Virus record (IMG/VR): IMGVR_UViG_3300031726_000433
Location: 34,722 to 98,721 of that record
Strand: one strand, 5' to 3'
DNA length: 64,000 bases
Source: a virus
The notes under the pieces were generated by a model. That model saw only the letters and a program-made list of their open reading frames with translations. It did no database searches and had not been told where the DNA came from. Positions 3,376-46,999 of the stretch are shown here, in pieces (the stretch's first letter is position 1; the number at the start of each line of letters is the position of its first letter). The position numbers were made by a program, and so were the translations under genes.

Positions 3376-3384
3376 GGAGATATC

Positions 3385-3897: not shown

Positions 3898-3905
3898 AGT
3901 AGACT

Positions 3906-3916
3906 CTATTTATAAG
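3906..3916 (+). promoter_or_regulatory. Candidate late-promoter motif CTATTTATAAG
   Basis: The CTATTTA core lies 20 bases before the GTG of the Kelch/LamG gene. It overlaps the 3' arm of a small hairpin (ATAGAG, TAGA, CTCTAT; 3894-3909) that also spans the upstream stop codon. It matches the motif found ahead of other structural genes (10010, 29565, 34188, 39032, 43301, 50803). Promoter function is inferred from recurrence. Confidence 0.35.
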
Positions 3917-3932
3917 TTGAGGAACAATTTAA

Positions 3933-6248
3933 GTGCCTACTTCATATTCTTGGGAAATAATCTCAGCACCTCTAAGCGGATCATCTCCTGGTCCAGGCGT
4001 CTATGTTCCGCAACAAGCTATTTTTGGAACTGATCCGAGAAAGAAACAATTTGAAAGAGGAATAAAGTTTGCAAATGCTCCTGGAAATAGAGCAGACATG
4101 GTTGTTCATGGTGGACCAAGAGTCCAACATATCAACAGCTTAGATGCTGCTCATATGAACCCAATGAAATCCATTCCAAGAGATGGAACATATTCTGGGG
4201 CTATGAAGTTTAGATTTAGAAGTTATAGAAACTTTGGCGTACCTTCGAGTGTAAATAAGGTTGAGTATAGATCTAGTGATAGATATACAAACCCAATTCT
4301 AGATGGAACCGGAGTTTATCAAGCTGATCATGTGTGGTTTACAACTGGCTCAGTGACATTCTCGACTAATCAGATGGCTCATGCAAGAACAGTTGCGACA
4401 GCAAACAGACTCAACGATTCGAGGATTATTGTTATTGGTGGTAATGAATCATCAAGTTTGGGGTTTGCAACGACACCATCGGCGTCAATTTTCGCGTCAG
4501 GAACAACAGGATCTTGGACACAGATAGCGTCAATGCCAACACCAAAGCAATATCATGCAGCTGTTACGTTATCTGGTTCTGGAGATGTTGTGGTTTTCGG
4601 TGGAGTAAATGACATCGAAACTTTAACAGAGGAAGTAAGAGCATACAGATACGTAACTACTTCAGGAACATGGATAGCGACATCAGCTTCTTCGTCTATT
4701 CCTAGATTAGATTTTCAAGTAGTACAATTACAAGACGGTACTGTGTTTTTGCCAGGAGGAAGAAAAACTGGCCTCACTCCAACTGGAATAACAGTTAACG
4801 GAAGTTCAAACACAAAAGCTTATTGGAACATGGATAGTCTAGGTTATTCTTCTGATAGTGATGGCGCCACTGACATGTATTTGCTGACAGTTGGTGCTAC
4901 TGCTTCTATTGTTCCTGGGATTTTAGGAAATGCTTTGCAAACAAGTGCTAGTGGGACGATATACGCAGTTGATGCAGCTGGAAAACTTCCAGGTATACTT
5001 TCTGGAAATTGCACGGTTGAGTTTTGGATGAATATTCTCTCAAGTTCAACAGCATCTCCATATGTTCAAGATCAAGGTGTCTTTGCGTACAGTGGAATTT
5101 TTTGGGATGATACGGGATTACAAACGACGAGACCGATGTTCCACATTCAATGGTCAAACTCTACAAGAAAGTTAAGTTTCTACATGAGCCACATGACTAA
5201 TGGGGTGTGGACAACACCAACACCTGTTTACAGTGCTGGGACAGCTTCTCTTGATACATGGCAGCATATAGCAATAACAAAAGAACATACAGGCGTATCT
5301 TTAGATGGATCTGTAAAATATTCAACTATAAAAATGTACATAAATGGAGTTCTTGATTCTACACACGTATCACAAGAAATGTCTACCATCCTCGGAGTAG
5401 CTGGAGAATACGTTTTGTTCGGAACGTCTCCGTCTCCAAGTAATGGTTTTGGTAGTTTAATTAACCTAACTGCCGCAAAATTTGATGACGTTTGTATAAG
5501 TTCAATAACGAAGACGGCATCTCAGGTAAGAACAACATATTTGAATGGAATTGGATATATTGAACGCTCAGAGATTTTTAACACTGGCTCTAATACATTC
5601 TCACTTGTCAATCCATTTCCGATAGAGCCTCTTTCGCGTCAAGGTTACACAACAACACTACTTGATGATGGGACAGTACTTGTGTGTGGAGGCTTAGAAT
5701 CAGGCGTCGCAACGTCCGCTTATAGTCACGCAATGAGATACTATCCAACACAACAAAGTTGGTCTCTTGAACCATCCATGTCTCTACCAAGAACATCTCA
5801 TGAAGCTGTACTGGTTGGAGGCGAAGTATATGTCATGGGTGGACAGTCGTCAATATCTCCAACTGTAATAGAAAATTCAGCTGAGGTTTATAATCCAGTG
5901 ACAAGAACATGGAGAAGATTAGCTGACATGAATGAACGACGCGTGAGATTTACTGCTCACGGATATAATAAGGAACAGGGTTCAAGAGTTATTGTCTTTG
6001 GTGGCAGAACAACGCTAGCTGGTGCTTTAAGTAAGACTGTAGAGGTCTTTGTTCCATCCGATTCAGATCCACTTGGGAGATGGTATTACATGCCATCTCT
6101 AGACTTTGAAGTAGCATATCAACGCGGAGCGTGTCTTAATCCAGGAGACACAGGATCAGTGTTCAAGTTCTTGATTCCGGGTGGTACAATGACATTAGGA
6201 CCAACAACTCTAACAACATCGTCTCAACTCTATACAACCACAGGATGA
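3933..6248 (+). CDS. Kelch-repeat protein with an inserted LamG domain, 771 aa
   Basis: GTG start at 3933. Kelch-type beta-propeller blades (paired Gly, then Tyr and Trp) occur at about residues 140-290 (RIIVIGGNESS, GDVVVFGGVND) and again at about 545-760 (TVLVCGGLESG, EVYVMGGQSS, YNPVTRTWRRLADM, VIVFGGRTT). Between them, about residues 325-540, is a LamG-type jelly-roll (CTVEFWMNILSS, LDTWQHIAITKEH, IKMYINGVLDSTH). A single propeller interrupted by a lectin-like domain is the simplest reading. Such folds bind proteins or glycans, so a host-recognition or fibre-scaffold role is inferred. A promoter-like motif precedes it. The fold call is firm; the function is not. Confidence 0.7.
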   Translation: MPTSYSWEIISAPLSGSSPGPGVYVPQQAIFGTDPRKKQFERGIKFANAPGNRADMVVHGGPRVQHINSLDAAHMNPMKSIPRDGTYSGAMKFRFRSYRNFGVPSSVNKVEYRSSDRYTNPILDGTGVYQADHVWFTTGSVTFSTNQMAHARTVATANRLNDSRIIVIGGNESSSLGFATTPSASIFASGTTGSWTQIASMPTPKQYHAAVTLSGSGDVVVFGGVNDIETLTEEVRAYRYVTTSGTWIATSASSSIPRLDFQVVQLQDGTVFLPGGRKTGLTPTGITVNGSSNTKAYWNMDSLGYSSDSDGATDMYLLTVGATASIVPGILGNALQTSASGTIYAVDAAGKLPGILSGNCTVEFWMNILSSSTASPYVQDQGVFAYSGIFWDDTGLQTTRPMFHIQWSNSTRKLSFYMSHMTNGVWTTPTPVYSAGTASLDTWQHIAITKEHTGVSLDGSVKYSTIKMYINGVLDSTHVSQEMSTILGVAGEYVLFGTSPSPSNGFGSLINLTAAKFDDVCISSITKTASQVRTTYLNGIGYIERSEIFNTGSNTFSLVNPFPIEPLSRQGYTTTLLDDGTVLVCGGLESGVATSAYSHAMRYYPTQQSWSLEPSMSLPRTSHEAVLVGGEVYVMGGQSSISPTVIENSAEVYNPVTRTWRRLADMNERRVRFTAHGYNKEQGSRVIVFGGRTTLAGALSKTVEVFVPSDSDPLGRWYYMPSLDFEVAYQRGACLNPGDTGSVFKFLIPGGTMTLGPTTLTTSSQLYTTTG

Positions 6249-6263
6249 GGCATATTTATAGAC

Positions 6264-9200
6264 ATGGCTGATGACTTCGGCGTATACAACATAACTGGTA
6301 AACTTGAACCAACTGTGAGTGCTTCACTTAGTACAGCTCTGCAAGTTTCCGGAAATTTGAACATTAAGAGAAGACCAACAAGAATAACGAGAGACTACAA
6401 CGAAGTTCAGACTGCGAGATCATCTTCTACAAAGCTAATGAACACTTTCGTGATCCCAGAGATTTCATCATCTCACTATGAATCGACATCATTAAATGCT
6501 TATCTAAGTGGAACGCAGAAACTAGAGAGTACAGCTGTTCCAGCGTCTGGAGCGTTCTACTACTCAAAGCAGAATAAACTTGTCAAGTACACGTTTGCAG
6601 TTACTGCCTCAAGTCAACTGGCGACTTCTATAGGTACTCAAGACACAAGTCCTGCGACAGATGAATATGCTGCCAGAGCTACTTACCTTGCGCTTTCTGG
6701 AACATATATCAACTCAGACATGTTTACCCCAGCAGTTATAAATTTCACAGTTCCAAATCATGGAAAGATCAGAGACATTAAGGTGTGGTTGGAATTTATC
6801 AACGATCATCGCGGCGGCCCAGGTCAAACATACACAGGTAGCCCATTCAAGGCTGGGGGCGCTGGAGATTCTGTAAACAACATGCAACAGGGACTACAAG
6901 GAGTTCAGGTAGCGCTGAGAAGTCCGAATGTTTCATTTGAAAATGCTCATCCTTTATGGAACGATCCAACAGTGAGGAATTTTCAAAAGTGGCCGACTGG
7001 TACAGATAGAGTAAGTTCTCAATTTACATATGTTCCAGAACTCTTGAAGAATTCTTATCCATTATGGGCGGGACATAAATGTGAAGATGATCTTGGAGAT
7101 GTTCTTGGATATCATACAGGATCAGTTTCTGCATCTTTCTCTATAAGAAGAATAAACAGTTCTTCATTTGGTCCTGGTATATTAGGAACAGAATTTGCAG
7201 ATCAAACGATTCTGAATGCTTATCCACACGATTTAGTAATGTCTGCATTTAGAACGATAGATGTCATATCTACGCAAAGAACATTGAATGACGTGAATGA
7301 TCAAACTTCTCTGTACTCACCAGGTGCATCAGTATTATATCTCACAACGACAGGAACATTGAACACAGCTGGTGCTTCTTACACAAACATAGATGGGAAT
7401 GGCAACTTAAATAATTCATACACTGGATATTACGTGATGAGTAGTTCACTACCACAGTCTGGAACAATTCAAGTAATGATGAATTATAACGACAATGGCA
7501 CGTACACGAATGCAAATGTTTCTCAATTCGCATCAGGATCATTACAGTTTTTTTCTAGTTCTTTGTCTTTTAACTTTAACGGCATGACGAGCGGAAAATA
7601 TGTATATAGAGCTCCCTTCTCTATGCATAGTCCAAGAATAAGACAACAAAGAAATTCACAATACTTACATGCAATTTGTTGTGATTACTCGTATGGTATA
7701 GTTTACGGAATAAGAATAGCTGGTTCGAATAATTATTCTCCGTGGAGATTAAAGTCTCCGATAATTTCATATAACGGTGGACAAGCATTCGCATCTCCAT
7801 GGGGACCAAATCAAGAAATTCTACCTGGTCCATTTGTAGATTTTGCTCTTGATTCAAGAGGTAAACCACATTTCATATTTAGTTCTGTAAATCTTAATAC
7901 AATTACATCTCAACTCGAATATGCTTTTTTCTCTGGATCGACAGCTGTTTACGAATCAACTCCTCCAAATTCACTTCCAGTTACTAATACAAGCGACACA
8001 ATATATCCAAAACATTATGAATATTACACAGGATCAATACCAGGATTCACAAACGCGTCCTCATTCTATTGGCCTGATTTCATGGTCGGTGTGCTAGATA
8101 ATCCACAATTGAATCCTATCAAGGATAGTAAGAATCCTCAATCGTCAGCCGGACCATATTGTAGAATTGAAATTGATACAAGTGATATGATTCATGTCGT
8201 TTACGCCGATGTCATCAATAAATCTGTCAAATATGCGAAGAAACAAGTTGCATATACACAATGGTCTGGATCATGGGACTTTAATCTAGTTTTTAAACAC
8301 TCTGGTTCATCTGTATTTCCAACGTACATTTCTCTAGACATAGATAAAAATAATAAACCACATATTGCTTATGCTTTATCTGATGTGTCGGCTAATAGCA
8401 GCAGCATTTACTACGCTAAGTCAGGATCATCAGGATGGGAGACCAATCTTGTATCTTCAACACGCGGTGTTAAATTCGGAACAAACATAAAACTTGATAA
8501 CGATGATAACCCTGTGATAATTACGACTGCACAAAATTTTGATGGAAATAACAAATCAGCTCTTTTAATGTTCACATCCAATTCAAGTGGTTGGGATTTC
8601 ATAACACTCAATATGTCAAGCAGTAATGATCCAAGGACTACTTCGCTGATGTTCGACAGGAATAATAAGAAAAGAATTTACACGGGTGGAGAGGACTTGA
8701 CAGCGATATGGGAACTTTCATCTTCTCAAGATGCAACTCATACGTCATATGACACAGATATTGACATGAGAACTATTTTTACTGATAGCTCGAAGAATCT
8801 TAATCCAAGGAATCTCTCTTCGTTATATGACAGCTTGTCTGATATATCTCCTGGAGATTCAAAACGACCTTATCTTAGATTCTTTGATGGAAGAGCTTAC
8901 CCAAGTCCCTTTTCTGCATCATTGCCAATCCTTCAAGCTTTTGGTGTATGGGGATTAGTTTCAGCATCTCACTTGTTTGATCCACCAAAAGGTCAATCAA
9001 CTGCTCTCTCTGGAGCAAATATTCCATGGATGTTAGATCCTAGAATCCCACCAGGAATATTTCACGGTTTAAATTATCAACCAACGACAACATCTTCAAT
9101 CGGTTGGTCTCCTCCTACAGGCTGGCTAACTGGACCTGGAGGAACTGCAAATGTAAATGAGTTCCCAACGACTGGTTCAAATCTTGGTCCAGTTGACTTA

Positions 9201-23283: not shown

Positions 23284-23907
23284 ATGTTATTCGGTTGGGA
23301 CATCTCTACGTCAGTTATCGGTTTTACCGTCTTGGATGATTCTGGTAAATGGGTAAAGTCTGACTACTTTGATTTCAAGAAGTTAGATGCCAAGTCTCTG
23401 CACGATAAAATGGATGAATGTACTTGGTGGGTTCATGATCAACTAGAATCTTATTCTTCTGGTTCTCACCATCATTACTTTGAAGACAAGCTTGGAAATT
23501 TTGCATTTGGAAAGACTCAGATGCAAACATTGATGAAGCTTGCAGCATTCAATACTTTATTCTCATACGAAGTTATTAGAATTCACAACGAGATTTGTAC
23601 ATTCGAAGCTGGTGGATTAGGGATGGGATCAACTCATATTCATCCGTCTACTGTTAAGTCAATCATGAAACGAGAAGGTCTGATAATTCCAAAGGGATCT
23701 AAAGAAAAGAAGAAGATAACATTAGACTTTGTGATGAAAAAGCTTCCTGAATTTCCCATTGTGTATAACAGAAATGATAAACCACAGCCATTTTGCTTCG
23801 ATATGGCTGACAGTTTCATCACAGTTAGGGCTGGTTATTTGAGATCCTATTTATTAGGTGACTCCTCAACAAAAACTACAAGCGATTCGGAAGACTCTGA
23901 ATCATGA
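23284..23907 (+). CDS. RuvC-like Holliday junction resolvase (RNase H fold), 207 aa
   Basis: Acidic residues sit where a RuvC-type nuclease needs them: D6 in LFGWDISTS (strand 1), E67 in HYFEDKLG, and D173 and D176 in FCFDMADSF. The HPSTVKSIM segment corresponds to the DNA-binding part of the family. The expected job is cutting branched DNA made by recombination or replication, for resolution before packaging. ATG 23284 has AAGGAGA just before it. Its 3' end overlaps the primase start by 50 bases, and the Mre11-Rad50 fusion follows, forming a recombination and replication island. The C-terminal 20 residues are Ser/Thr/acidic and probably a tail. Length is typical of phage RuvC-like enzymes. 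Confidence 0.8.
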   Translation: MLFGWDISTSVIGFTVLDDSGKWVKSDYFDFKKLDAKSLHDKMDECTWWVHDQLESYSSGSHHHYFEDKLGNFAFGKTQMQTLMKLAAFNTLFSYEVIRIHNEICTFEAGGLGMGSTHIHPSTVKSIMKREGLIIPKGSKEKKKITLDFVMKKLPEFPIVYNRNDKPQPFCFDMADSFITVRAGYLRSYLLGDSSTKTTSDSEDSES

Positions 23908-24778
23908 GCAGATAACGAAGGGTGACGAAGTAGTATTCTTCTGTCCTCGTTGCAATCATCATAAGCCAAAACTCAGTGTAAATCTACTAACTGAGATATT
24001 TCATTGTTGGATATGCGATTGGAAGGGCAAAAACATTGCACCTCTTCTTGAAAAGAACTCAAAAGAGAAACAGGAGTACATCGAAGAGTTAAAAGAAAAG
24101 TCGCTAACTCCAGTTGCAAAGCAGGAGAAGAAGTATGATCCACTTGTACTTCCAATAGAATTTAAAACACTTTCAAAAGAATGGTCAGGACCCTATTATA
24201 AAGCAGCAGTTAGATATCTCTCTGAAAGAGGAATCGAAAGAGAAGATATTCTTAAGTGGAAACTTGGGTATTGTGAAGATGGTGATTACAAATACAGGAT
24301 CATTATTCCGTCGTTCGACGATTATGGACATCTAAACTTCTTTACTGGTAGAGCTTTTTACGATAACAATCCCAAGAAGTATAAGAATGGAAATTTTTGT
24401 AAGGACATCATCTTTAATGACTATCTTATTGATTGGAATAAGCCAATTACAATTACTGAAGGTCCATTCGATGCTTTCAAGATAAGCAAGAACGCCATAG
24501 CACTCCAAGGAAGCACACTTAGTTATAGGTCAAAGTTGTTCTCAAAAATAGTTCTGTCTGGAGTAGATGTTCACTTCGCCATGGATACAGATGCTTTTGA
24601 AAAGCAATTAGACATTATTGACAATTTTCTATCGTACGGTGTAACATGTCATTACGTAAATCTCAATGGCAAGAAAGACGTCGGAGAAATGACGAAGAGT
24701 GAATTTGACACTGTTGCATCAAGATCAATCGAAATAAAATCGGATCTAGATATTCTTAGAATGAGGGCCAGAGTTTGA
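23858..24778 (+). CDS. DNA primase with zinc finger and TOPRIM domain, 306 aa
   Basis: An N-terminal zinc ribbon uses C29, C32, C50 and C53 (CPRCNHHKPKLS ... FHCWICDWKG), as in CHC2-type primases. TOPRIM motifs follow at about residues 197-207 (ITEGPFDAFK, glutamate motif) and 238-244 (FAMDTDAF, DxD). This is the architecture of primases that lay RNA primers at the fork, comparable in role to T4 gp61. GTG 23858 is the only plausible start ahead of the zinc finger and makes a 50-base overlap with the resolvase gene. The stop overlaps the TTG start of the next gene, implying coupling. No helicase domain is present, so it should act with a separate helicase. Confidence 0.85.
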   Translation: MTPQQKLQAIRKTLNHEQITKGDEVVFFCPRCNHHKPKLSVNLLTEIFHCWICDWKGKNIAPLLEKNSKEKQEYIEELKEKSLTPVAKQEKKYDPLVLPIEFKTLSKEWSGPYYKAAVRYLSERGIEREDILKWKLGYCEDGDYKYRIIIPSFDDYGHLNFFTGRAFYDNNPKKYKNGNFCKDIIFNDYLIDWNKPITITEGPFDAFKISKNAIALQGSTLSYRSKLFSKIVLSGVDVHFAMDTDAFEKQLDIIDNFLSYGVTCHYVNLNGKKDVGEMTKSEFDTVASRSIEIKSDLDILRMRARV

Positions 24779-27700
24779 AAATAGTACACATAAGCGATAT
24801 CCACATCAGAAATTTGAAGTATCACTCTGAGTACAAGAGAGTTTTTGAAAACTTGTATAAGAAGCTTGATCAAATTAAACCAGACTTGATAATCAACACT
24901 GGAGATACGGCTCATACAAAGACTCAGATTAGTCCCGAATTCGTAGAGATGGCATCGGAGCATATGAGAAGAGCCAGTGAGTATGCTCCTTATCACATGA
25001 TTCTTGGAAATCATGATATGAATATGATGAATGCAGATCGCCAGGATGCGATCACACCAATCATTGACAGCATTAAGAGCGATAAGATTTTCCTGCATAA
25101 GAAGTCAGGATTGTCATTTACTTTCAAGAGTGGTGGAGTAAACTACAATTTCTGGACTTTCTCACTAGCAGATAGAGAACGATATCCAATCCCATCAGAT
25201 TGGGCTAAGCTAAAGGATGATGTTAACATAGGGTTATTCCATGGTTCTGTTACTCACTGTGTAACAGATATGAATTGGAGAATGACTCAGGTAGAACATG
25301 ATCTGACAATATTCGACGGTTTAGACTTCGCTTTCCTTGGTGATATTCACAAACAACAATTCTTTAGAGAAAGAACAATAGCATATCCAGGTTCTTTGAT
25401 TCAGCAAAACTTTGGAGAAGAGCTTGAAAAAGGGTTTCTGTTGTGGGAACTGAATGGGAAATCAAAGTATAACGTTACTTCACATATCCTTGATGGAAGC
25501 AGAAAGTTCCATACAATAAGATTGAATACAGATCTCTCAATTCCAGACTTGAAAATTGAAGAGGGTTCAAGAATAAGAATAAGCCCTCCCGTAACAATAA
25601 CGTTGGCACAGCAGAAGGAAATTGAGAAGAAGGTAAAGCTTCAGTTCAAGCCTTATGATGTAATTACATTGTCTGCTGTTGATATGGGAATGCAGAAGGC
25701 CACATCTGGTAAGGACACAGCATCAATAGAAAATTTGCGTGAGCTTAATGCACAAGAAAAGCTCATACGTGAATATCTTAAGCCAAAGAATCTAAGTGAA
25801 AAGATTCTGCAAAAGGTTCTAGATCTTAATAGGAAGTATCAGATACATGTAGAACAGGATGATGATACAACAAGAAATATCCAGTGGAAAGTTAACAAAC
25901 TATTGTGGTCCAACTTCTTTAACTACGGTGAAAATAATCTAATTGACTTCTCTCAAATTCCAGGGTTGAGTGGTATCTTTGCACCGAACGCATCAGGAAA
26001 GTCTAACTTTATAGACATACTGTTAGAGACGTGTTTCGATGCTACAACTAAGGGTGTGAACAAGAACATTTATCTGATCAACGATAACAAGGATAATGCT
26101 ACAGCAATCGCTGATATCACAGTGAATGATCAGAATTACATGATCGAGAGAACTGTTGAAAGAATAAAGTATGGCACAAGAAAGCTGGAAGAGTCGAAGG
26201 AGTGGGGAAAGACATCTGTAAACTTTTCAATGTTGGACGGCCTTGGTGGAACAGAATCATTAGAAGGAACTCTTAGACCAGAGACTGAAAGAAACATAAG
26301 ACAGCGTCTCGGGACGTTCGATGACTTCATGCTCACTTCACTCTCAGCTCAGTGGAATCCGATGGACGTTATTGGAGTCAAAGAAACTAAGAGAAAGGAA
26401 ATCTTCTACAAGTTCTTTGACCTCGATATTTTTGCTCAGAAGGGATTGTTGGCTAAGGACGAGAGCAAGGAATTCTTTGGTAGATTACATGAACTTGAGG
26501 AAAGTGGTATTGAGGATGCAATTAAACAATATACATTCAAGATAAAGCAGAGAGAGGAAGCAATTGCTGAAATCAATAAGTTGATAACCACTAACACAGA
26601 CGCTCTCGAGATGATAGACGCAAATATTCTTCATTATACATCACTGAAGAAAAATGTAGACATATCTTGGAAGGACCTTGGTGACTGGGCAGGAAGAATC
26701 AAGAAAGCTGATCTTTCGATAGAGTCAAATGAGATTAAGTTAAAAGAGCTTGTAGAGAGACTGGCTGCTGTCGATATGGATCTCGCAAAGGTTCTTAAGT
26801 TAGAGCAGCGCTTTGATCTCGAAAAGTTCGAAGTTGCCGAAAAGAGAATAGAAGAGATTTTCGGGATCATAAGTGAAATCAAGATAAGAGCAAATGAAAA
26901 GACAGGCAATCTTAACTACCACAAGGAGAATGTCAAATTACTTGGTCAGGTACCATGTGGTGATAAATTTCCATCATGTAAGTTCTTGGTTAACGCATTT
27001 GATTCTAAGAATAAGATAACTGAAATAGAACTAGAGTTAGAGGATCTTTCTAAGAGAAACTTGACGCTTTATAATGAGCGTGAAGAATTGTGGCCGTTAA
27101 AGAACAAGCTTGATGCATACAGAGAATTTACAGGCGAGAAAGAATCACTAACATCTCGAAGTGATAATCTTAAACTTCAAATAGAGAATATGAAGTTAAA
27201 GATTGAAAGTCTGCAGTCTGAAAAGGAACAGGCTGTGGCCGACAAGGAGAAGTACGAAAAGGCAGAAGGCGATCTCGAAAACAATAAGATGTACGATCAG
27301 ATGATTAGCAATTGCCAGAATAACAAGATTGGAGTCGTAAAATCTTTGGAAGAACTGCAAAAAGATCTCTCGACTAATGATAGACTACTTGGAGCCGACC
27401 AGGGTATTCTAGAAAAGCTCTCTTCTCAAATATCAGAGCTTGAAGATCTTCGTGATATGTGCACGGCATTTGAAGTCTATGGCCAGGCTATGGGCAAGGA
27501 TGGAATCGCTTACCAGATTCTTGCGCAGAAGATTCCAATGATCAATGAAGAGATTAACAAGATTCTCTCCAACTCTGCAGACTTCAATGTTCACATAGAA
27601 CATGATCCGGAAGAACAATCCATCAGATTCTTTATTCAGTACGGTCAATACAAGAGTAGACTCTTGGAGTTGGGATCCGGAGCAGAGAAATTCTTAGGTT

Positions 27701-27954
27701 CTCTTGCTATCAGAGTTGGACTTCTAAACATGTCCAATCTTCCCAAGACAAACATGTTCATTATAGACGAAGGATTCGGTAAGCTTGATCCTAAGAATCT
27801 AGAGAGCATTCAGAGAATGTTTGACTACTTAAGAACAGTGTTTGAACATATCATCGTTATCAGTCACCTCGATACAATGAAGGACATGGTTGATAACATC
27901 ATAGAGATTACAACTGACGATGAAGGTTATGCTCATCTAAATGTTGGAGGATAA
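24775..27954 (+). CDS. Fused Mre11-like nuclease and Rad50-like SMC ATPase (gp47-gp46 type), 1059 aa
   Basis: TTG start at 24775 overlaps the primase stop. Residues 1-370 hold calcineurin-type phosphoesterase motifs: SDIH (D8, H10), NTGD (D44), GNHD (79-81), LFHGSVTH and FLGDIHKQQ, as in SbcD, Mre11 and T4 gp47. Residues about 380-1059 are the SMC-type ATPase: Walker A FAPNASGKSN (about 403-412), long coiled coils around a C728-x6-C735 pair at the hook position, signature ELGSGAEKF (about 965), Walker B MFIIDEGFGKLD (about 993) and switch ISHLD. The family resects DNA ends for recombination-dependent replication. In T4 and bacteria these are two proteins; here they are continuous with no stop. 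Identification is firm. Confidence 0.92.
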   Translation: MKIVHISDIHIRNLKYHSEYKRVFENLYKKLDQIKPDLIINTGDTAHTKTQISPEFVEMASEHMRRASEYAPYHMILGNHDMNMMNADRQDAITPIIDSIKSDKIFLHKKSGLSFTFKSGGVNYNFWTFSLADRERYPIPSDWAKLKDDVNIGLFHGSVTHCVTDMNWRMTQVEHDLTIFDGLDFAFLGDIHKQQFFRERTIAYPGSLIQQNFGEELEKGFLLWELNGKSKYNVTSHILDGSRKFHTIRLNTDLSIPDLKIEEGSRIRISPPVTITLAQQKEIEKKVKLQFKPYDVITLSAVDMGMQKATSGKDTASIENLRELNAQEKLIREYLKPKNLSEKILQKVLDLNRKYQIHVEQDDDTTRNIQWKVNKLLWSNFFNYGENNLIDFSQIPGLSGIFAPNASGKSNFIDILLETCFDATTKGVNKNIYLINDNKDNATAIADITVNDQNYMIERTVERIKYGTRKLEESKEWGKTSVNFSMLDGLGGTESLEGTLRPETERNIRQRLGTFDDFMLTSLSAQWNPMDVIGVKETKRKEIFYKFFDLDIFAQKGLLAKDESKEFFGRLHELEESGIEDAIKQYTFKIKQREEAIAEINKLITTNTDALEMIDANILHYTSLKKNVDISWKDLGDWAGRIKKADLSIESNEIKLKELVERLAAVDMDLAKVLKLEQRFDLEKFEVAEKRIEEIFGIISEIKIRANEKTGNLNYHKENVKLLGQVPCGDKFPSCKFLVNAFDSKNKITEIELELEDLSKRNLTLYNEREELWPLKNKLDAYREFTGEKESLTSRSDNLKLQIENMKLKIESLQSEKEQAVADKEKYEKAEGDLENNKMYDQMISNCQNNKIGVVKSLEELQKDLSTNDRLLGADQGILEKLSSQISELEDLRDMCTAFEVYGQAMGKDGIAYQILAQKIPMINEEINKILSNSADFNVHIEHDPEEQSIRFFIQYGQYKSRLLELGSGAEKFLGSLAIRVGLLNMSNLPKTNMFIIDEGFGKLDPKNLESIQRMFDYLRTVFEHIIVISHLDTMKDMVDNIIEITTDDEGYAHLNVGG

Positions 27955-27957
27955 AAT

Positions 27958-28200
27958 ATGTGGATTAAGAATACTGACGGAAAGAAAGATGCAGTTCTAA
28001 CAATGGCTACGCTTGGATTTGCTGTGGTGCTCATAAAGGTGCTTCTAGGGGGTTCTCACTTCCACATAGGTAACCAGGAGGTTGTCATAGGAGTAATTGA
28101 CGGCAGTGTGATCGGCGCCCTTCTGACCCCAACCTTGGGAGCATATGTGGCCCGCAGGTACACAGACAAGAAGCTTCCTCCGCCAGCGGAACAGAAGTGA
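27958..28200 (+). CDS. Small membrane protein with two predicted helices, holin-like, 80 aa
   Basis: Two hydrophobic stretches (about residues 14-31, LTMATLGFAVVLIKVLL, and 43-64, VIGVIDGSVIGALLTPTLGAYV) are joined by a short loop, with a charged C terminus (RRYTDKKLPPPAEQK). ATG 27958 is preceded by GGAGG at the end of the previous gene. Size and topology fit a class II holin, but also many small phage membrane proteins. It sits directly before another membrane-anchored gene. No endolysin is present nearby, so a lysis role is only a possibility. Confidence 0.55.
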   Translation: MWIKNTDGKKDAVLTMATLGFAVVLIKVLLGGSHFHIGNQEVVIGVIDGSVIGALLTPTLGAYVARRYTDKKLPPPAEQK

Positions 28201-28206
28201 GGATAT

Positions 28207-29016
28207 ATGGAAATTCCAGATAAAGTTGTCAAGATTACTTTACTTGTTTTTGTAGCTTTACTTCTTTCTGCTGTGATAATTGTTGGTGTAGTAAAGAAAG
28301 TCAATGATGATAAGGTAATTGAACTTCAAAACCAGATTGCGTCAAAGGATACTACGATAGAGACGCAGAAAGGTTTGTACGAAAAGTTATCATTGCAATC
28401 TGATGATCTTAAGGATCTACTTGACAAGAGTGACGCTCAAAATAAGACGCTCATCAAGGCTCTAGAAGCAAATAGAGAAGAGCTTTTAACTGCGAATTCA
28501 CTTGTAATTAAGTGGAAGCATGCATATGAAGCTGAAGTTGCTGGTCACCAGACTGAAATTCCTCCCGTTAATCCTGGAGGAGTTGCACGCAAGAAGGTAG
28601 AATTCGATAAAGACTTTGGTTATCTTGTAGTTCACGGATATACTTTAACAGATCCTCCACAAGCATACATCAATGTTTCACAGGGTAGACCTCTAAAGTT
28701 AACGATTGCAGTTTCTCAGGATAAAAACGGAGTGTGGCGATCAAGAACTACATCATCTGAAGAAAACATGCAAGTTGAAATAGCTCTAGCTTCAGTTAAT
28801 CCATTCATGTTAGAATCTCGTTGGTATGAGAATATTGGTGTTGGTGCAGATCTTGCCGGTGGTCAAGCTGGAACTGGATTCGGAATTTTAGCTGGAGTAG
28901 GTGCAAGTTATAAGATTGGCAAGTTCGAAGTTGGACCTCATGTCTGGATAGGTATCTCTGATAGAATTGATAAATATCTTGGCGTTCAATTCATTTGGCA
29001 TCCTTTTGCGAGGTAA
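28207..29016 (+). CDS. Membrane-anchored coiled-coil protein with beta-rich C terminus, 269 aa
   Basis: A single N-terminal transmembrane helix (about residues 9-30, ITLLVFVALLLSAVIIVG) is followed by a coiled coil (about 35-115) with heptad-like Leu, Ile and Glu spacing. A Pro/Gly linker comes next, then a C-terminal half of alternating strands ending GVGASYKIGKFEVGPHVWIG and WHPFAR, which looks like outer-membrane beta-hairpins. This layout would span a periplasm, as spanins do, but no known family is recognised. The gene follows the small two-helix membrane protein with 6 bases between them. Envelope location is fairly likely; role unknown. Confidence 0.55.
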   Translation: MEIPDKVVKITLLVFVALLLSAVIIVGVVKKVNDDKVIELQNQIASKDTTIETQKGLYEKLSLQSDDLKDLLDKSDAQNKTLIKALEANREELLTANSLVIKWKHAYEAEVAGHQTEIPPVNPGGVARKKVEFDKDFGYLVVHGYTLTDPPQAYINVSQGRPLKLTIAVSQDKNGVWRSRTTSSEENMQVEIALASVNPFMLESRWYENIGVGADLAGGQAGTGFGILAGVGASYKIGKFEVGPHVWIGISDRIDKYLGVQFIWHPFAR

Positions 29017-29018
29017 TT

Positions 29019-29327
29019 GTGCAATCAAAACAAAAGTTTGTACTCTATAATCTCCGCGAAACATATCATGAACTAGGGAATTACGAGTTCAAAATAGTTC
29101 TAGATCCAAGATCTTTTAAAAACGGACATCTTTCAGAACTTCTATGTTTAGATTCAGATGGTAAACCCATGAAGTTTGAATATGAAAAATGGGGAAGAAA
29201 GATAAACTGTAAGTTTCTAATAGACAAGAGTGTAGCAGACGGAGTTTCTACTATCAAAATGAACTTAAAAGATGATAGTGGACATCAACATGAGGGTAGA
29301 GCCTCATTCTGGATTATAAAGCCTTGA
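29019..29327 (+). CDS. Hypothetical protein, GTG start, 102 aa
   Basis: I place the start at GTG 29019, two bases after the previous stop with GAGG at 29010-29013. An in-frame TTG at 28995 would overlap the upstream gene and has no ribosome site. The product is mixed alpha/beta with alternating charged and hydrophobic residues, without membrane segments or Cys clusters. It is not recognised. It is followed at once by the zinc-ribbon gene, probably in the same transcript. Confidence 0.5.
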   Translation: MQSKQKFVLYNLRETYHELGNYEFKIVLDPRSFKNGHLSELLCLDSDGKPMKFEYEKWGRKINCKFLIDKSVADGVSTIKMNLKDDSGHQHEGRASFWIIKP

Positions 29328-29328
29328 T

Positions 29329-29535
29329 ATGACTAATGAATATAGAGTTCCAACATTCTGCCCTCAATGTGAATTTTTAATGAAAGGTAAGTCAACGTAC
29401 ACTTACATGGATCATGGTGTCTGCGTGAATTGTTTTATTCAATTTGTGGAAGGTAGAGAAGAAAGATGGAAGTCTGGATGGAGGCCATCGCCTGAACAAC
29501 TTGAAGCTTTTAAGAAATCTATTTCAAGTTATTGA
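29329..29535 (+). CDS. Small zinc-ribbon protein, 68 aa
   Basis: Two CxxC pairs, C11-C14 (FCPQCEF) and C32-C35 (VCVNCFI), are spaced as in a zinc ribbon. The rest is a basic, aromatic-rich helix (EERWKSGWRPSPEQL). Small zinc proteins of this kind are common in T4-like phages, where some bind nucleic acid or host RNA polymerase; no specific role can be read here. ATG 29329 lies one base after the previous stop. Confidence 0.6.
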   Translation: MTNEYRVPTFCPQCEFLMKGKSTYTYMDHGVCVNCFIQFVEGREERWKSGWRPSPEQLEAFKKSISSY

Positions 29536-29564
29536 TATCTACGTCACTTTTCCACAGCTAGCCT

Positions 29565-29575
29565 CTAGTTAGAAG
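29565..29575 (+). promoter_or_regulatory. Candidate late-promoter motif CTAGTTAGAAG
   Basis: Core CTAGTTA lies 33 bases before ATG 29605. TTAGAAGTGG is identical to the site at 10010. It sits just before the gene pair ending in the large terminase. Confidence 0.4.
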
Positions 29576-29604
29576 TGGGAAACTTTCTTTTCGGAGCACC
29601 CAAA

Positions 29605-29997
29605 ATGGATAAAAAGCCTGAGAGTTTTGAAATGACTGAATACGGTGAAGAGCACCGTCATTTAGATAAGACACTTTCTGTTATAACTGAGATAGTAAGA
29701 GATCAAGTTCATGATTCTCCAGCTGTTAATGTGAGGGTTACATTTACTGGAAACCTCATGAAGTTGACATATCATTGCTATGAAATGCACCTTCCAGTTA
29801 GAATGAGAGATGTTGAAGAGACTGCTAGAAAAGCACTAACAGAAACTGTAAAGAACATCAAGAAGGAATTTAAGTCTCGTACAAAGGAAACACTAGATCT
29901 TTCTGAAAAGAAGGAGATGGAGAATTACTCTGTACAGAAGGTTAGCTTGAATGAACGTTACATGTATGCTTCGTGGCGTTTCTTTGAGATTGGATAA
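29605..29997 (+). CDS. Hypothetical protein upstream of terminase, 130 aa
   Basis: An in-frame GTG at 29575 exists, but it overlaps the promoter-like motif. ATG 29605 has GGAG at 29593-29596 with an 8-base spacer and is preferred. The product is mixed alpha/beta, with a helix rich in Lys/Glu (about residues 80-105) and no catalytic motif. It ends directly at the terminase ATG. The position, just before the large terminase, is where small terminase subunits occur, but no helix-turn-helix or T4 gp16 likeness is visible, so I leave it unnamed. Confidence 0.6.
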   Translation: MDKKPESFEMTEYGEEHRHLDKTLSVITEIVRDQVHDSPAVNVRVTFTGNLMKLTYHCYEMHLPVRMRDVEETARKALTETVKNIKKEFKSRTKETLDLSEKKEMENYSVQKVSLNERYMYASWRFFEIG

Positions 29998-31683
29998 ATG
30001 AACAAATCAATTCTGCGCAATGAAATCATCATGTGCGGAAAGGATCCTTGTTACTTCATACGAAAGTATGTTAAGATCAAGCATCCTGTAAGGGGGCTCA
30101 TACCCTTTACAATGTTTGACTATCAAGAAGAACTAGTTCAAGACTACGTTAAGCACCGTTTTAACGTAGTCTTAAAAGCAAGACAACTTGGTATATCTGA
30201 AGTCACTGCTGCATATGCAACGTGGCTGATGTTATTCCACAGAGAAAAGAATATCATTGTAATGGCGTCCAAGGCAGATACTGCCAAGAACATTATTCGT
30301 AAGGTTGCCACAGCTCTAAAGAAACTTCCGAAGTGGTTGATGTTGGCAGATGTTACAACCGATAATAAGTTGTCAATAGAACTAAGTAACGGATCAAGAA
30401 TAGCTGCGATTGCAACGTCAGAAGATGCAGGACGTTCAGAAGCTGTTTCATTTCTTATCATCGACGAAGCTGCATTCGTCCAAAGATTCGATGAGTTGTG
30501 GACAGGACTTTATCCTACAGTTGCTGCTGGTGGTAGAGCTGTCGTGTTGTCTACTCCAAATGGCGTAGGAAACAAATTCCATCAGATTTATTCAGAGGCA
30601 GAAGAGGGTACCAACGACTTTAAGCCTCATGTGTTTATGTGGTGGAGGCATCCTGAAAGAATCTCTGACTTAAGAGACGATCCAGATAGAAAGGGTTTCA
30701 AGACATCGACGTGGCTTGTTAATGAAATCAAAGCAGCAAACATGTCTCCAAGAGACGTCGCTCAGGAACTTGAATGCAACTTTAATGCGTCTGGTGATAC
30801 TGTCATAACGACAGAAGCAATGAATTGGTTGAGAGATGGAACGATGCAGCCAGCAGAGAGAGCTCACTGGGATAGGAATCTTTTTCGTTGGTTTCAAGCT
30901 CACGGAAAGGCAAGATACGTAATATCGGCAGACGTTGCCAGAGGCGATGGAAGAGACCACTCTGCTGCACACGTATGGGATGCTCAATCAATGTCTCAGT
31001 GCGCAGAGTATTATGGAAAGGTTCCAGTCGAAGAGTTTGCTAAAATCCTATGTGATCTTGGACATGAATACAATAATGCGTTGCTTGTTGTTGAAAATAC
31101 GTCTATAGGTTTGGCTTGTATCGAACATATAAAACTTCTCAACTATGAGAATGTGTACTTCTCTAGAAGAGGAGATCAGAGACCAGGTGAAGCTGTTAAT
31201 ATGTATTGGGGACCAAACACTGAAGATCTTGTTCCTGGGTTCACAACTTCTCAAAAGAATAGATCGTTGATGATAGCAAAGCTAGAAGAGTATATAAGAA
31301 ATAAAATCATCACGATAAGATCTGAAAGATTCACGGAAGAATTAAGAACATTCATCTGGAATAACGGTAGACCTGAAGCTATGAAAGGTTATAACGACGA
31401 CCTTATAATGGCTGCCGCCATTGGTGTCTGGATTAGAGATACGTATCTATCACCGTCCTTTGCTTCTTCAGACATACAAGGCAAATTGCTTGGTGGAATA
31501 GAGATGGATAGGACATACAATAGTCAAATAAAAGGTGCCTCGAAGGATCCTCGTGCTTCTGCAAGCAATTCTCCAGCGCAGAGGGGTAATTATAAGGGTA
31601 GTATTGGAGCGAGAGTAAGACTACCAAATGGCATAACTGAAGATTTTAGTTGGTTGGTAGATGGTATCATAAGTAAGGGGTAA
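29998..31683 (+). CDS. 17: Terminase large subunit (T4 gp17-like), 561 aa
   Basis: DNA-packaging motor ATPase and headful nuclease. The N-terminal ATPase shows the adenine-binding DYQ (Q43), a Walker A-like segment KARQLGISE (60-68), Walker B FLIIDEAAF (152-160) and the coupling motif LSTPNG. The C-terminal RNase H-like nuclease has SADVARGDGRDHS (about 312), LLVVENTSIG and the final acidic pair in GYNDDLIMAA. Length is close to that of T4 gp17 (610 aa). Walker A lacks the usual GKT/S, the lysine lying ahead of the loop, a variant known in several terminases. ATG 29998 follows the previous stop with no gap. The product should dock on the portal protein encoded at 32295. Confidence 0.93.
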   Translation: MNKSILRNEIIMCGKDPCYFIRKYVKIKHPVRGLIPFTMFDYQEELVQDYVKHRFNVVLKARQLGISEVTAAYATWLMLFHREKNIIVMASKADTAKNIIRKVATALKKLPKWLMLADVTTDNKLSIELSNGSRIAAIATSEDAGRSEAVSFLIIDEAAFVQRFDELWTGLYPTVAAGGRAVVLSTPNGVGNKFHQIYSEAEEGTNDFKPHVFMWWRHPERISDLRDDPDRKGFKTSTWLVNEIKAANMSPRDVAQELECNFNASGDTVITTEAMNWLRDGTMQPAERAHWDRNLFRWFQAHGKARYVISADVARGDGRDHSAAHVWDAQSMSQCAEYYGKVPVEEFAKILCDLGHEYNNALLVVENTSIGLACIEHIKLLNYENVYFSRRGDQRPGEAVNMYWGPNTEDLVPGFTTSQKNRSLMIAKLEEYIRNKIITIRSERFTEELRTFIWNNGRPEAMKGYNDDLIMAAAIGVWIRDTYLSPSFASSDIQGKLLGGIEMDRTYNSQIKGASKDPRASASNSPAQRGNYKGSIGARVRLPNGITEDFSWLVDGIISKG

Positions 31684-40956: not shown

Positions 40957-42636
40957 ATGGATTTAAATTCGATCATGACTGAGGGGATCACACAAGTTGA
41001 TCGTCAGAAGGAGACGACAAAGCTTGTTGGAAAGTGGGATAGGACAGGACTCCTAAAGGGTCTTCAGGATTCCAAGACGAACCCAATCAAGTCAAACATG
41101 GCTCGCCTCTTGGAAAACCAAGCTGGCCAGCTTCTTAGAGAATCTACTTCAACTGGAGATATTCAAGGGTTCCAGAACGTAGCATTCCCTATCGTACGTA
41201 GAGTGTTCGCTGGCTTGATTGCAAACGAACTCGTCTCCGTTCAGCCAATGAGCCTTCCATCTGGATTGCTCTTCTATCTAGATTACAGATATGACACAGT
41301 AAAGGCAGGTGATAAGGCGAAGGACTTCGCAGCGGGCGGTTCGTTGTTTGGCGATCGTAACTCACTCCAGGATTCTCAGGGCGCAGGTTCGTTGTACAAC
41401 CTTGCAACCTCATTCTCCCAGCGTGAAAAGATTGCAACTGGTTCATTCTCTGGTTCTCTTGCTACGGCATCTCTATCAGACATCAACTGGGATCCAGAAC
41501 TCTCTGCAAGCATTGGTGCCGGTACACTTAAGGCATTCACTGTTACGAACGCATGGTCTGGTGTTGGATCACTCGGTGGCGCAATGACAGATACTGCTTC
41601 TCTTAAGCAGTGGGTCGTTGTTTCTGGTTCGTCAACTGTTTCTTCTGCAAGCACTGACGGTACTCCAGTACGCCTTGGTCTAGCAACCGTTGTTCGTCGT
41701 CACACTCGCAAGAGCGGAAACGACATCGTATTCATCCTTGATACTACGGATGGATTCCCAACTGCGATGGAAGCATGCAAGGTTTCATACCTTGTCGGTG
41801 CAACCCTCACTGGTGGAACTTCTGGTACTCTTACATCTCCAGACTTTGAATCTGACCTTGGTGCATCTCCAATGCCAGTTATTCCAGAGTTGGATATCAG
41901 AATCGAATCACAGGCCGTTACAGCATCAAGCCGCAAGCTACGCGCAAAGTGGACTCCTGAACTAGCGCAGGACCTCGCAGCTTACCAGAACTTGGACGCA
42001 GAAGTTGAGCTTACTCAGGTTCTTTCTGAGGCAATCGCCCTAGAAATCGACCGTGAAATTCTTGCGGACCTTCTCTACGGAGCAACCGGAGCTAACTACT
42101 TCTGGTCACGTATGCCAGGTAAGTTCCTTGATAAGACCAACGGTAACACTGTGTCGGGTGCTTCATTCACTGGTACGGTTCGTGAATGGTACGAAACCTT
42201 GATCGAAACGATCATCGACGTTGCCAACACAATCCACAGAAAGACACTACGTGGTGCTGCTAACTTCGTGGTTACTTCTCCAGACGTTGCAACTATTCTT
42301 GAGGCTTCAGTCCTCTACAAGCCAGTCCTTTCGATGGATCCACAGGAGACCATGTTCTCCGTTGGAACCGAGAAGGTCGGTACGTTGAACAGCCGCTTCA
42401 CGGTCTACAAGGATCCATACTTCCCAAGAAACAGAATCTTGGTTGGTTACAAGGGATCAAGCTTCTTGGAAACTGGATTCGTATATGCTCCTTACGTTCC
42501 ATTGATTGTAACTCCAACAATCTATGCTCCAGAAGACTTCACTCCACGTAAGGGTGTTATGACCAGGTACGCCAAAAAAATGGTCAGGTCAGATTTTTAC
42601 GGGACGGTCACCGTAATGGACATGAATGTAATCTAA
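40957..42636 (+). CDS. 23: Major capsid protein (T4 gp23-like), 559 aa
   Basis: Forms the hexamers of the head shell. T4-type gp23 features: N-terminal helical pro-region (MARLLENQAGQLL) ending near residue 65, then FQNVAFPIVRRVFAGLIANEL and VQPMSLPSGLLFYLDYRY, and in the C-terminal half ELTQVLSEAIALEIDREIL, TLRGAANFVVTSPDVA and the final FTPRKGVMTRYAKKMVR. The N-terminal part should be removed by the gp21-type protease. Length compares with 521 aa in T4. ATG 40957 has AGGAG at 40942-40946. A strong terminator follows. No gp24 vertex paralogue is in the window. Confidence 0.95.
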   Translation: MDLNSIMTEGITQVDRQKETTKLVGKWDRTGLLKGLQDSKTNPIKSNMARLLENQAGQLLRESTSTGDIQGFQNVAFPIVRRVFAGLIANELVSVQPMSLPSGLLFYLDYRYDTVKAGDKAKDFAAGGSLFGDRNSLQDSQGAGSLYNLATSFSQREKIATGSFSGSLATASLSDINWDPELSASIGAGTLKAFTVTNAWSGVGSLGGAMTDTASLKQWVVVSGSSTVSSASTDGTPVRLGLATVVRRHTRKSGNDIVFILDTTDGFPTAMEACKVSYLVGATLTGGTSGTLTSPDFESDLGASPMPVIPELDIRIESQAVTASSRKLRAKWTPELAQDLAAYQNLDAEVELTQVLSEAIALEIDREILADLLYGATGANYFWSRMPGKFLDKTNGNTVSGASFTGTVREWYETLIETIIDVANTIHRKTLRGAANFVVTSPDVATILEASVLYKPVLSMDPQETMFSVGTEKVGTLNSRFTVYKDPYFPRNRILVGYKGSSFLETGFVYAPYVPLIVTPTIYAPEDFTPRKGVMTRYAKKMVRSDFYGTVTVMDMNVI

Positions 42637-44129: not shown

Positions 44130-45275
44130 ATGGCATTTCAACCTGGCAATACGCCATTTGGTATATTCGATAACGATTCGCAGTTTCAGTTAGAAGCTGA
44201 TAGGATCGTAGAATTTACATTGCTTAAGCTGGGCGCGCCAGTTATGGCTGTCCACATGAGCTCGAGTCAGATCTATGCTTCATTTGAAGAAGCAGCGCTA
44301 GAGTACTCAGCAATCATCAATTCATATCAAGCAAAGTCTGTCATAACTTCATTCCTCGGAGCTCCAACTGGATCTCTATCTGGATCTGAACAGAAGTATG
44401 TTACACAGAATCTAGAGTTCCAGAAGAAGTTGGCAGAACCATATGGTGACTCTGGTCCTCTGATGGTCAACACGTCATTGCCTTTGTACAGTGGATCCAT
44501 CAATCTTCAGACAGGACAGCAGAAGTATAACCTCAACGGCTTGTTTGCATCTCAATTAACAGGATCGGGAAATACAAAGTTGGTCGTAAGACAGATTTAC
44601 CACTTCAGTCCAATGTCTGCTTACAGATTCTTTGGTACAACTTCTGCAATGAATTACTTGCATAATCAGTTTAACTTCGAATCATTCACACCAGAGACTA
44701 TCTTCTATCTTCTTCCAATCTGGGAAGACATTCTTCGCGGAATGCAGTTTGAAACTTCGAATAGAGTTCGTAGATCAAATTACAGCTATGAAATGCATAA
44801 CAATGAGTTAACTGTGTTTCCAGCTCCAGCGAACAATATGCCGTTGTGGATAACGTGGCAGTACCCACCAAATCCAACTCAACCAGCAGCTATAAACGGA
44901 TTAAGTGGGTCTGTTGATCAAAGTTTCTATGGCGTTTCTAATCTTTCAAATGTACCGTTTGGAAATATTGAATATTCAGGACTTAACTCAATTTCAAAAC
45001 AGTGGATAAGAAGATTTGCGTTTGCTCTTGCAAAGGAAATTGAAGGACAAATCAGATCTAAGATGTCTAGCATTCCAATTCCAAATGGTGATCTAAACCT
45101 AAATGGGCCAGAGCTTATTGCTGATGCAAGAGCAGAGCAGGATAGATTGAGAGAAGAATTGAAGGCAATGCTTGAAGACATGACATACGACAAGTTGGCA
45201 GCTCGTCAAGCAGAACAGGCGGCATCTCTTGAACAAGTTATCATGAGAATTCCACTGGGAATCTATATTGGATAA
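44130..45275 (+). CDS. Neck / head-completion protein (gp13-like), 381 aa
   Basis: The N terminus FGIFDNDSQFQLEADRIVEF and the following helix FEEAALEYSAIINSYQAKS fit the neck protein family found after gp23 in distant T4-like phages; the middle is beta-rich and the C terminus is helical (ADARAEQDRLREELKAMLED). In T4, gp13 and gp14 close the filled head and join it to the tail. The next gene overlaps by one base (TAATG), matching a gp13-gp14 pair. Assignment rests on context and general family likeness, hence moderate confidence; gp13 against another head-completion type is not settled. Confidence 0.55.
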   Translation: MAFQPGNTPFGIFDNDSQFQLEADRIVEFTLLKLGAPVMAVHMSSSQIYASFEEAALEYSAIINSYQAKSVITSFLGAPTGSLSGSEQKYVTQNLEFQKKLAEPYGDSGPLMVNTSLPLYSGSINLQTGQQKYNLNGLFASQLTGSGNTKLVVRQIYHFSPMSAYRFFGTTSAMNYLHNQFNFESFTPETIFYLLPIWEDILRGMQFETSNRVRRSNYSYEMHNNELTVFPAPANNMPLWITWQYPPNPTQPAAINGLSGSVDQSFYGVSNLSNVPFGNIEYSGLNSISKQWIRRFAFALAKEIEGQIRSKMSSIPIPNGDLNLNGPELIADARAEQDRLREELKAMLEDMTYDKLAARQAEQAASLEQVIMRIPLGIYIG

Positions 45276-46999
45276 TGTCAAGAAAATTCATAACAGATCG
45301 CGAAATTGCCTTTATCAATTCTATAAACAAGGAATTGATTCAGTCTGTCGTTGGACAGGAGATATCGTATTACTCAATTTCTCTTGAAAAGAGCAGAGCA
45401 AATAGACTTTATGACGAAGCCATAGAAAAGGTATGGGACCCACCAGTTCTAATAAATGCAAGAATAATGTGGGATAACACACAGTCTGCTTCTACGTCAT
45501 TCGGTGTAGACTCAAAATACTCACTGGAAGTTTACTTTCACAACAAAGAACTTGAAGAAAGAAATATACTTCCTAAGGAAGGCGACTTCATAGAGTTTGG
45601 AGAAGTCTTCTTTGAAATCACATCTGTCACACAACCACAGATAGTGTTCGGGCAAATCAACAATAAGATCATGACGAAGTGTGTTTGTGTTCCTTCACGC
45701 GAAGGTCAGTTTCAGGCTGGTGCCCGAGACAGCGAGGGAATTCAACATACACATCCAGTTGAACAGGTCATAGATCCAGATCTCGTAGATGTCCCACCAC
45801 AGATAACTTCACTAAGATTCACAGGAAACTATCCAGGATCCCAAACTGAATTGAAGGCCGGAGATACATTTCAGGTAACTGGAACGACGAACAAGGCGGC
45901 TGTAGGAGTTAGAGTTCTAGACTTCGGAGCAGCCACATTATCTGAGATAAGCTTCTCGTCAACCACGACATTCACAGTCACTGTAACAATAGCTGACAGA
46001 GGAACCACTACACAGAGTCTCACAGCCAAGCTTCAAGCAAGAAATAATAGAGGTTCATATGGTAATCCTGTTGCAACTTCAAACACTGTAGTTCTAAACA
46101 ACACTATCCCATCATTACAATTACTTTCAATAAGCTATCCAATAAATCAAATGGCACTGAAGAATTCAGAATCAGCTTTGGTGGACATTCTTATATCAGA
46201 TGCAGATACCATGTTGTTTGAAAGTCCAAACAACGAGTTGAGTGTGTTAGATCCGACAGTTATTGAAACACCAAAGACTGTTACAAGAATAGCTGGGACA
46301 TACAATATTTCAGCAACGAATTTCAGAGCAACAGCTAATAGAGCTGCAAATAATTCCCAGGCAGTTCTCAATACAAATGTTGCAATAGTGAATGTAGCTC
46401 CATCTGTTTCAGCTATACTTCCAGCAGCACGTCTAAGATCTGGTGGAAATGATGGTACAGTTGTTCAAGATCATGTGATAGCTCTATCTTCAGATCAACC
46501 ACTTTATGTTGTCCCTGTCATGGATGAAGCTATAGGTGGTGGTACGTTCCTTGCAGATTGGTCAGGGTTTGATGCGACGTGGACCAGAACACTTCAGGTT
46601 CATGATAATCAAACAAAGGGAATCTACAGTTGGAGAAACATGTCTTTCGTGGGGTTGTCAGGTTTGACAACAACTACGCTAAACTCTGGAACAACATATG
46701 AGCTTGGCGGATTTGTAGCAAGAACAATAACATTTGCACCATTCAGTCATACGGCAACTATAAATGTGGCAGTTTCTCAATATTCACTGTTGCAAGCTGG
46801 CGTATTTACGGCGACGAATCAACAGTCATTTCTTAATGTGACACAAGGAAATCACAGTAACATTGCAGATACGTTCACTGTTAATTCAGTTGGTTCAAAT
46901 CCAACAACTGTCTACTGGAATGATGATGCGGCTGCTGGATCTAACTCAAGTGGGTTAGCCCAACTTCTTAGCTTAGAAGAATTGATAACAAGTAATTAA
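45275..46999 (+). CDS. Neck protein (gp14-like) N terminus fused to Ig-like repeats, 574 aa
   Basis: Residues 1-150 resemble a head-closure/neck protein: YDEAIEKVWDPPVLINARIM, EVYFHNKELEERNILPKEGD, IEFGEVFFEITSVTQPQIVF. T4 gp14 has about 256 residues; here the chain goes on with about 400 residues of beta-rich Ig-like repeats (PPQITSLRFTGNYPG, IPSLQLLSISYPINQ, APSVSAILPAARL). The extra domains could project from the neck like whiskers or bind surfaces. ATG 45275 overlaps the previous stop. The neck assignment is moderate; the Ig-like repeats are clear by eye. Confidence 0.6.
   Translation: MSRKFITDREIAFINSINKELIQSVVGQEISYYSISLEKSRANRLYDEAIEKVWDPPVLINARIMWDNTQSASTSFGVDSKYSLEVYFHNKELEERNILPKEGDFIEFGEVFFEITSVTQPQIVFGQINNKIMTKCVCVPSREGQFQAGARDSEGIQHTHPVEQVIDPDLVDVPPQITSLRFTGNYPGSQTELKAGDTFQVTGTTNKAAVGVRVLDFGAATLSEISFSSTTTFTVTVTIADRGTTTQSLTAKLQARNNRGSYGNPVATSNTVVLNNTIPSLQLLSISYPINQMALKNSESALVDILISDADTMLFESPNNELSVLDPTVIETPKTVTRIAGTYNISATNFRATANRAANNSQAVLNTNVAIVNVAPSVSAILPAARLRSGGNDGTVVQDHVIALSSDQPLYVVPVMDEAIGGGTFLADWSGFDATWTRTLQVHDNQTKGIYSWRNMSFVGLSGLTTTTLNSGTTYELGGFVARTITFAPFSHTATINVAVSQYSLLQAGVFTATNQQSFLNVTQGNHSNIADTFTVNSVGSNPTTVYWNDDAAAGSNSSGLAQLLSLEELITSN

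What the first reader, a model, noticed from the sequence alone, without database searches (positions are those of the whole stretch)
24775..27954. Mre11-like nuclease and Rad50-like ATPase fused in one 1059-residue protein
All phosphoesterase motifs (D8, H10, D44, GNHD 79-81) and all SMC ATPase motifs (Walker A at about 403, signature at about 965, Walker B at about 993) lie in one uninterrupted frame. T4 gp47/gp46, SbcD/SbcC and Mre11/Rad50 are normally two proteins. A fusion fixes the stoichiometry and gives a natural single-chain version of the complex.
Basis: partly seen in the sequence, partly recalled or inferred. Interest (0 to 1): 0.75.

Follow-up and report, generated by a model that had tools for sequence, protein, structure and literature searches.

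The report
Phage Mre11–Rad50 DNA-end nuclease fusion
A large uncultured tailed phage makes its DNA-end-processing nuclease and the ATP-driven motor that controls it as one protein instead of two; such fusions have been described since 2011 and prove to be very common in environmental phages, so this is a well-supported new example rather than a surprise.

Summary
Confirmed: window 24775-27954(+) is one open frame of 1059 aa with a complete Mre11/SbcD half (phosphoesterase, capping domain, Rad50-binding helix-loop-helix; residues 1-362) joined by about 8-9 residues to a complete Rad50/SbcC half (371-1059). It is not an artefact: 122 recovered single frames carry both halves (96 at <90% identity), catalytic residues and the join itself (R367, W371) are conserved, and the join evolves under purifying selection. 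The window has no SD-preceded internal start near the join. AlphaFold2 and Foldseek recover both halves. The fusion is a known kind: Yoshida, Claverie and Ogata (2011, PMC3175470) described Mre11/Rad50 fusions in Mimivirus R555, Bacillus phage 0305phi8-36, plasmids and eukaryotes, and abundant marine phage-like relatives beside primase genes, as here. The window protein shares two unusual active-site residues reported for R555 (H47, D190). Modest additions: all sampled phage fusions form one clade in separate trees of the nuclease and ATPase halves, suggesting one ancient fusion where the 2011 paper inferred several; and about half of them, the window's included, carry a CX6C-type motif instead of the CXXC zinc hook. 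Biochemical activity remains inferred.

The parts
24775..27954 (+). Mre11-Rad50 (SbcD-SbcC) fusion gene, 1059 aa
   Evidence: single ORF; Pfam/PHROG hits; 122 sequences in one frame
24775..25494 (+). calcineurin-like phosphoesterase (Mre11/SbcD nuclease) domain, about residues 1-240; D8, H10, D44, N79, H80, D81, H156, D190, H192
   Evidence: Pfam PF00149; residues invariant or nearly so in 65 sequences
25507..25668 (+). capping domain, about residues 245-298
   Evidence: AF2 secondary structure; domain name by analogy with Mre11; match to SbcD nuclease+capping domain 7dog
25678..25743 (+). flexible linker, about residues 302-323 (pLDDT below 50 over 302-317)
25744..25860 (+). helix-loop-helix, helices 324-338 and 342-362: likely Rad50-binding domain
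   Evidence: role by analogy with T. maritima Mre11 (PMC3175470)
25861..25884 (+). join, residues 363-370, R367 invariant
25885..26454 (+). Rad50 N-lobe of the ATPase head (about 371-560), Walker A 403-410
   Evidence: Foldseek, PHROG 77
26425..27492 (+). antiparallel coiled coil (about 551-906), apex near 726-738 with C728 and C735 (CX6C in place of CXXC)
27505..27951 (+). Rad50 C-lobe (about 911-1059): signature 967-972, Walker B 994-999, D-loop D1005, H1031
23858..24778 (+). DnaG-like primase (zinc ribbon plus catalytic core) whose stop overlaps the start of the fusion gene
   Evidence: conserved neighbour

Best explanation
The gene makes a single-chain Mre11-Rad50 nuclease. Two chains probably dimerise through the nuclease domains and the ATP-sandwiched heads, giving the usual M2R2 assembly from two polypeptides. 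The ATP state opens or closes access of DNA ends to the nuclease sites. The chain's own helix-loop-helix, about 9 residues before the canonical Rad50 start, probably holds the root of its own coiled coil, and the coiled coil tethers DNA ends. In the phage it most likely resects or cleans double-strand ends for recombination-dependent replication and repair, as gp46/gp47 do in T4, and is probably translated coupled to primase. Shown: one frame, both complete domain sets, conservation, predicted fold, gene order. Inferred: dimer, in-chain contact, activity, biological role.
For: Domains; AF2 model mean pLDDT 82.5 with nuclease, cap, helix-loop-helix and Rad50 head in order; Foldseek hits to Rad50/SbcC heads (7yzp, 3qku, 3av0) and Mre11/SbcD (7dog, 3thn). 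Catalytic and ATPase residues conserved in 65 sequences. Low nonsynonymous change across the join (pN 0.20 with synonymous sites saturated, residues 321-372 against L011). 89 of the first 100 loci in one frame, exceptions mostly contig ends. Primase upstream and terminase downstream conserved in many relatives. Precedent and geometry: PMC3175470.
Against: No protein, activity or phenotype was measured. Proteolytic separation after translation cannot be excluded from sequence. pTM is 0.54, so the relative placement of the domains is not established. GHxH is replaced by GDIH in the nuclease site, so specificity or rate may differ from canonical Mre11.
Confidence: 0.85

Rival explanations
1. Two products are made from the one gene by an internal start or by cleavage near residues 302-370, so the complex is in effect an ordinary two-subunit SbcCD.
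For: Residues 302-323 are predicted flexible; 12 of 65 aligned sequences have some SD-like in-frame start between residues 315 and 385.
Against: The window itself has none and positions are not shared among relatives; R367 and W371 on the join are invariant or nearly so, which a discarded spacer would not need.
Confidence: 0.06
2. The nuclease half has lost Mre11-type exonuclease activity and acts mainly as a structural or differently specific phosphoesterase, with the ATPase half as an SMC-like DNA tether.
For: GHxH is GDIH at motif V in all 65 sequences of alignment A2; CXXC hook replaced in part of the clade.
Against: All other metal ligands are invariant or nearly so, Asp can ligate metal, and the change is fixed rather than decaying.
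Confidence: 0.08
3. Assembly or sequencing artefact that joined two genes.
For: The window comes from a metagenomic virus record.
Against: Identical in a second contig (L007) and uninterrupted in isolates and in 96 sequences below 90% identity.
Confidence: 0.01

Closest known systems
Mimivirus R555 and R555-like phage/marine fusions (Yoshida, Claverie, Ogata 2011, PMC3175470)
   Same: Mre11-like N-terminus fused to Rad50-like C-terminus; GDxxH in place of GDxxD and Asp in place of P. furiosus Mre11 His206, both present here (H47, D190); phage primase genes nearby on marine scaffolds
   Different: R555 is 1351 aa with a longer coiled coil; here 1059 aa in a tailed phage. The R555 sequence itself was not compared directly here
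Microcystis phage Mel-JY01 WWT39521.1
   Same: 1066-aa fusion, 30% identity over 98% of the protein, primase-like gene close upstream
   Different: CXXC hook
Tenacibaculum phages pT24/PTm1, Chryseobacterium phage MA9V-1, Sphingomonas phage PAU 'metallo-phosphoesterase' proteins
   Same: single-chain fusion
   Different: about 1300 aa, deep sister clade, CXXC hook, different gene neighbourhood
T4-type gp47/gp46 and E. coli SbcD/SbcC
   Same: same two domain sets and probable function
   Different: two separate genes; CXXC hook; GHxH nuclease motif

Membership tests
Mre11/SbcD nuclease | calcineurin-like phosphoesterase fold with DxH, GDxx(D/H), GNHD | tested here: met
Mre11/SbcD nuclease | GHxH metal-binding motif V | tested here: not met
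   GDIH (D190) in the window and in all 65 aligned fused sequences; PAU has GHIH. R555 is reported to have the same change (PMC3175470)
Mre11/SbcD nuclease | capping domain and Rad50-binding helix-loop-helix | tested here: met
   AF2 secondary structure 245-298 and 324-362; assignment of roles by analogy
Rad50/SbcC ATPase | bipartite ABC head: Walker A, signature, Walker B, D-loop, around a long coiled coil | tested here: met
Rad50/SbcC ATPase | CXXC zinc hook at the coiled-coil apex | tested here: not met
   window has C728-X6-C735; of 96 dereplicated fusions 51 have CX5-7C, 42 CX2C, 3 neither
Mre11/Rad50 fusion proteins (as described in 2011) | both domain sets in one uninterrupted frame, nuclease first | tested here: met
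Mre11/Rad50 complex | Mn- and ATP-dependent end nuclease activity | not testable with these tools
   needs purified protein

The most novel reading that the evidence does not exclude
The phage fusions descend from one ancient fusion event in tailed phages (not repeated fusions), kept together ever since, and one large branch has rebuilt the zinc hook as a longer CX6C apex, that is, a new way of joining or tethering Rad50 coiled coils.
Probability: 0.4. Interest if true: 0.45.

Novelty: new member of a known kind. Interest (0 to 1): 0.27.

Why it matters
A natural single-chain Mre11-Rad50 of 1059 aa with fixed 1:1 stoichiometry and short coiled coils would be a convenient protein for structural and mechanistic work. 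The wide spread of the fusion in environmental phages shows that the two-gene arrangement of T4 is only one of two common phage solutions. The finding does not overturn an established view, since the fusion was already described.

Tried and rejected
Literature searches for later experimental work on the fusion found only the 2011 bioinformatic paper in the held library. Plasmids: only partial similarity to ordinary SbcC or phosphoesterases, no fusion covering 80% of the query. Defence-system library: only weak SMC/phosphoesterase matches (mad3, mad8, PDC-S10), rejected as shared folds. Search for split close relatives of the fused clade: none found, but the Moorella SbcC scan of viral contigs returned nothing, so absence is weak evidence. 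The RNase H/RuvC-like reading of 23284-23907 rests on eye only; no library or PDB match. Rfam scan of the insertion in L002 found no intron family.

Full report
What is there. The window is bases 34722-98721 of a 98,721-base IMG/VR virus record. It carries tailed-phage genes: terminase large subunit (29998-31683), major head protein (40957-42636) and tail sheath proteins, so the phage is a contractile-tailed one. The finding's ORF is 24775-27954 (+), 1059 aa. Its TTG start overlaps the TGA of the upstream DnaG-like primase gene and has GAGGG about 8 bases upstream; the close relatives L008, L009, L017 and L019 also appear to use TTG.

Both halves are real. Pfam finds Metallophos at 1-193 (E 6.5e-15); PHROG 77 (SbcC-like) covers 322-1051 (E 1.4e-40). 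A profile of 63 relatives finds solved SbcC, Rad50 and Mre11/SbcD chains. The AF2 model (mean pLDDT 82.5, pTM 0.54) gives, in order, the nuclease (1-240), capping domain (245-298), a disordered stretch (302-317), a helix-loop-helix (324-362), and the Rad50 head from 370 with a coiled coil (551-906). Foldseek matches the halves to Mre11/SbcD and Rad50/SbcC structures.

The join is real. The same frame is uninterrupted in an identical second contig, in contigs at 46-75% identity, and in isolates. In all, 122 single frames (the window included) carry both motif sets, 96 of them below 90% identity to each other. R367 is invariant and W371 nearly so in 65 sequences. Against L011 (75% identical) synonymous sites are saturated while pN over residues 321-372 is 0.20. 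No SD-preceded in-frame start occurs in the window near the join and none is positionally conserved. The exceptions do not point to a two-gene form of this clade: most are cut by contig ends; L002 has an inserted ORF inside the nuclease part; L134 has a frame change inside the nuclease part.

How it probably works. By established Mre11/Rad50 biology (T. maritima, E. coli, T4), two chains should pair through the nuclease domains and through ATP-bound heads. The 2011 paper estimated that 9-12 linker residues suffice to span from the Mre11 C-terminus to the Rad50 N-terminus in the T. maritima complex; here about 9 residues separate the last helix of the helix-loop-helix from the point matching the Rad50 start, so an in-chain contact is plausible. 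The overlap with primase and the recombination role of gp46/gp47 in T4 suggest end processing for recombination-dependent replication. Activity, oligomeric state and role are inferred, not shown.

What is known already. Yoshida, Claverie and Ogata (PMC3175470) described Mre11/Rad50 fusions in Mimivirus R555, Bacillus phage 0305phi8-36, plasmids, bacteria and eukaryotes, and found R555-like sequences abundant in marine viral fractions on scaffolds with phage primase genes. The window gene fits that description: primase immediately upstream, His at the GDxx(D/H) position, and Asp at the His206 position (GDIH). A primase homolog was detected in 77 of the 89 single-frame loci then in hand, a terminase homolog in 67. 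A jumbo-phage survey lists SbcC/SbcD as practically universal (PMC7824862).

Modest additions. With bacterial SbcC/SbcD as outgroup, 15 sampled fusions form one clade in the ATPase-lobe tree (support 95/93) and 14 in the nuclease tree (93/91), apart from eight (seven) two-gene phage systems. This favours one old fusion, while the 2011 paper inferred several; but sampling here was driven by similarity to fused queries, branches are long, and R555, 0305phi8-36 and cellular fusions were not included. Second, the apex motif is CX6C (PCGDKFPSC) in the window; of 96 dereplicated fusions 51 have CX5-7C, 42 CX2C and 3 neither, while ten of the eleven two-gene phage and bacterial comparators have CXXC (none was found in the Moorella phage). 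Whether this apex binds zinc is unknown.

Verdict. Observation confirmed and interpretation sound, but the phenomenon is a known kind. New member of a known kind, with two details worth testing.

Noticed in passing
26956-26979 (residues 728-735): CX6C (PCGDKFPSC) at the coiled-coil apex where two-gene phage and bacterial Rad50/SbcC proteins have CXXC; shared by about half of the dereplicated fused relatives.
   Followed up: partly
L002 6665-7582 (LR756508, 484-kb phage record): A zinc-finger/endonuclease-like ORF interrupts the fusion gene just after the GDIHK active-site motif; it looks like a homing-endonuclease or intron insertion. No Rfam match.
   Followed up: partly
L134 3304-6544: Fusion gene in two overlapping frames (3304-3975 and 3965-6544), broken inside the nuclease domain and not at the Mre11/Rad50 join; sequencing error or real frameshift unknown.
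   Followed up: no
L100 5992-6825: Stand-alone 277-aa relative of the nuclease half in a Bacteroidales MAG contig, without a Rad50 half next to it; keeps GHIH.
   Followed up: no
23284-31683: Gene order small protein (RNase H-like by eye only) - primase - fusion - terminase is kept in many environmental phage contigs.
   Followed up: partly
45275-46999 and 50872-53163: Two different genes both match tail sheath families.
   Followed up: no
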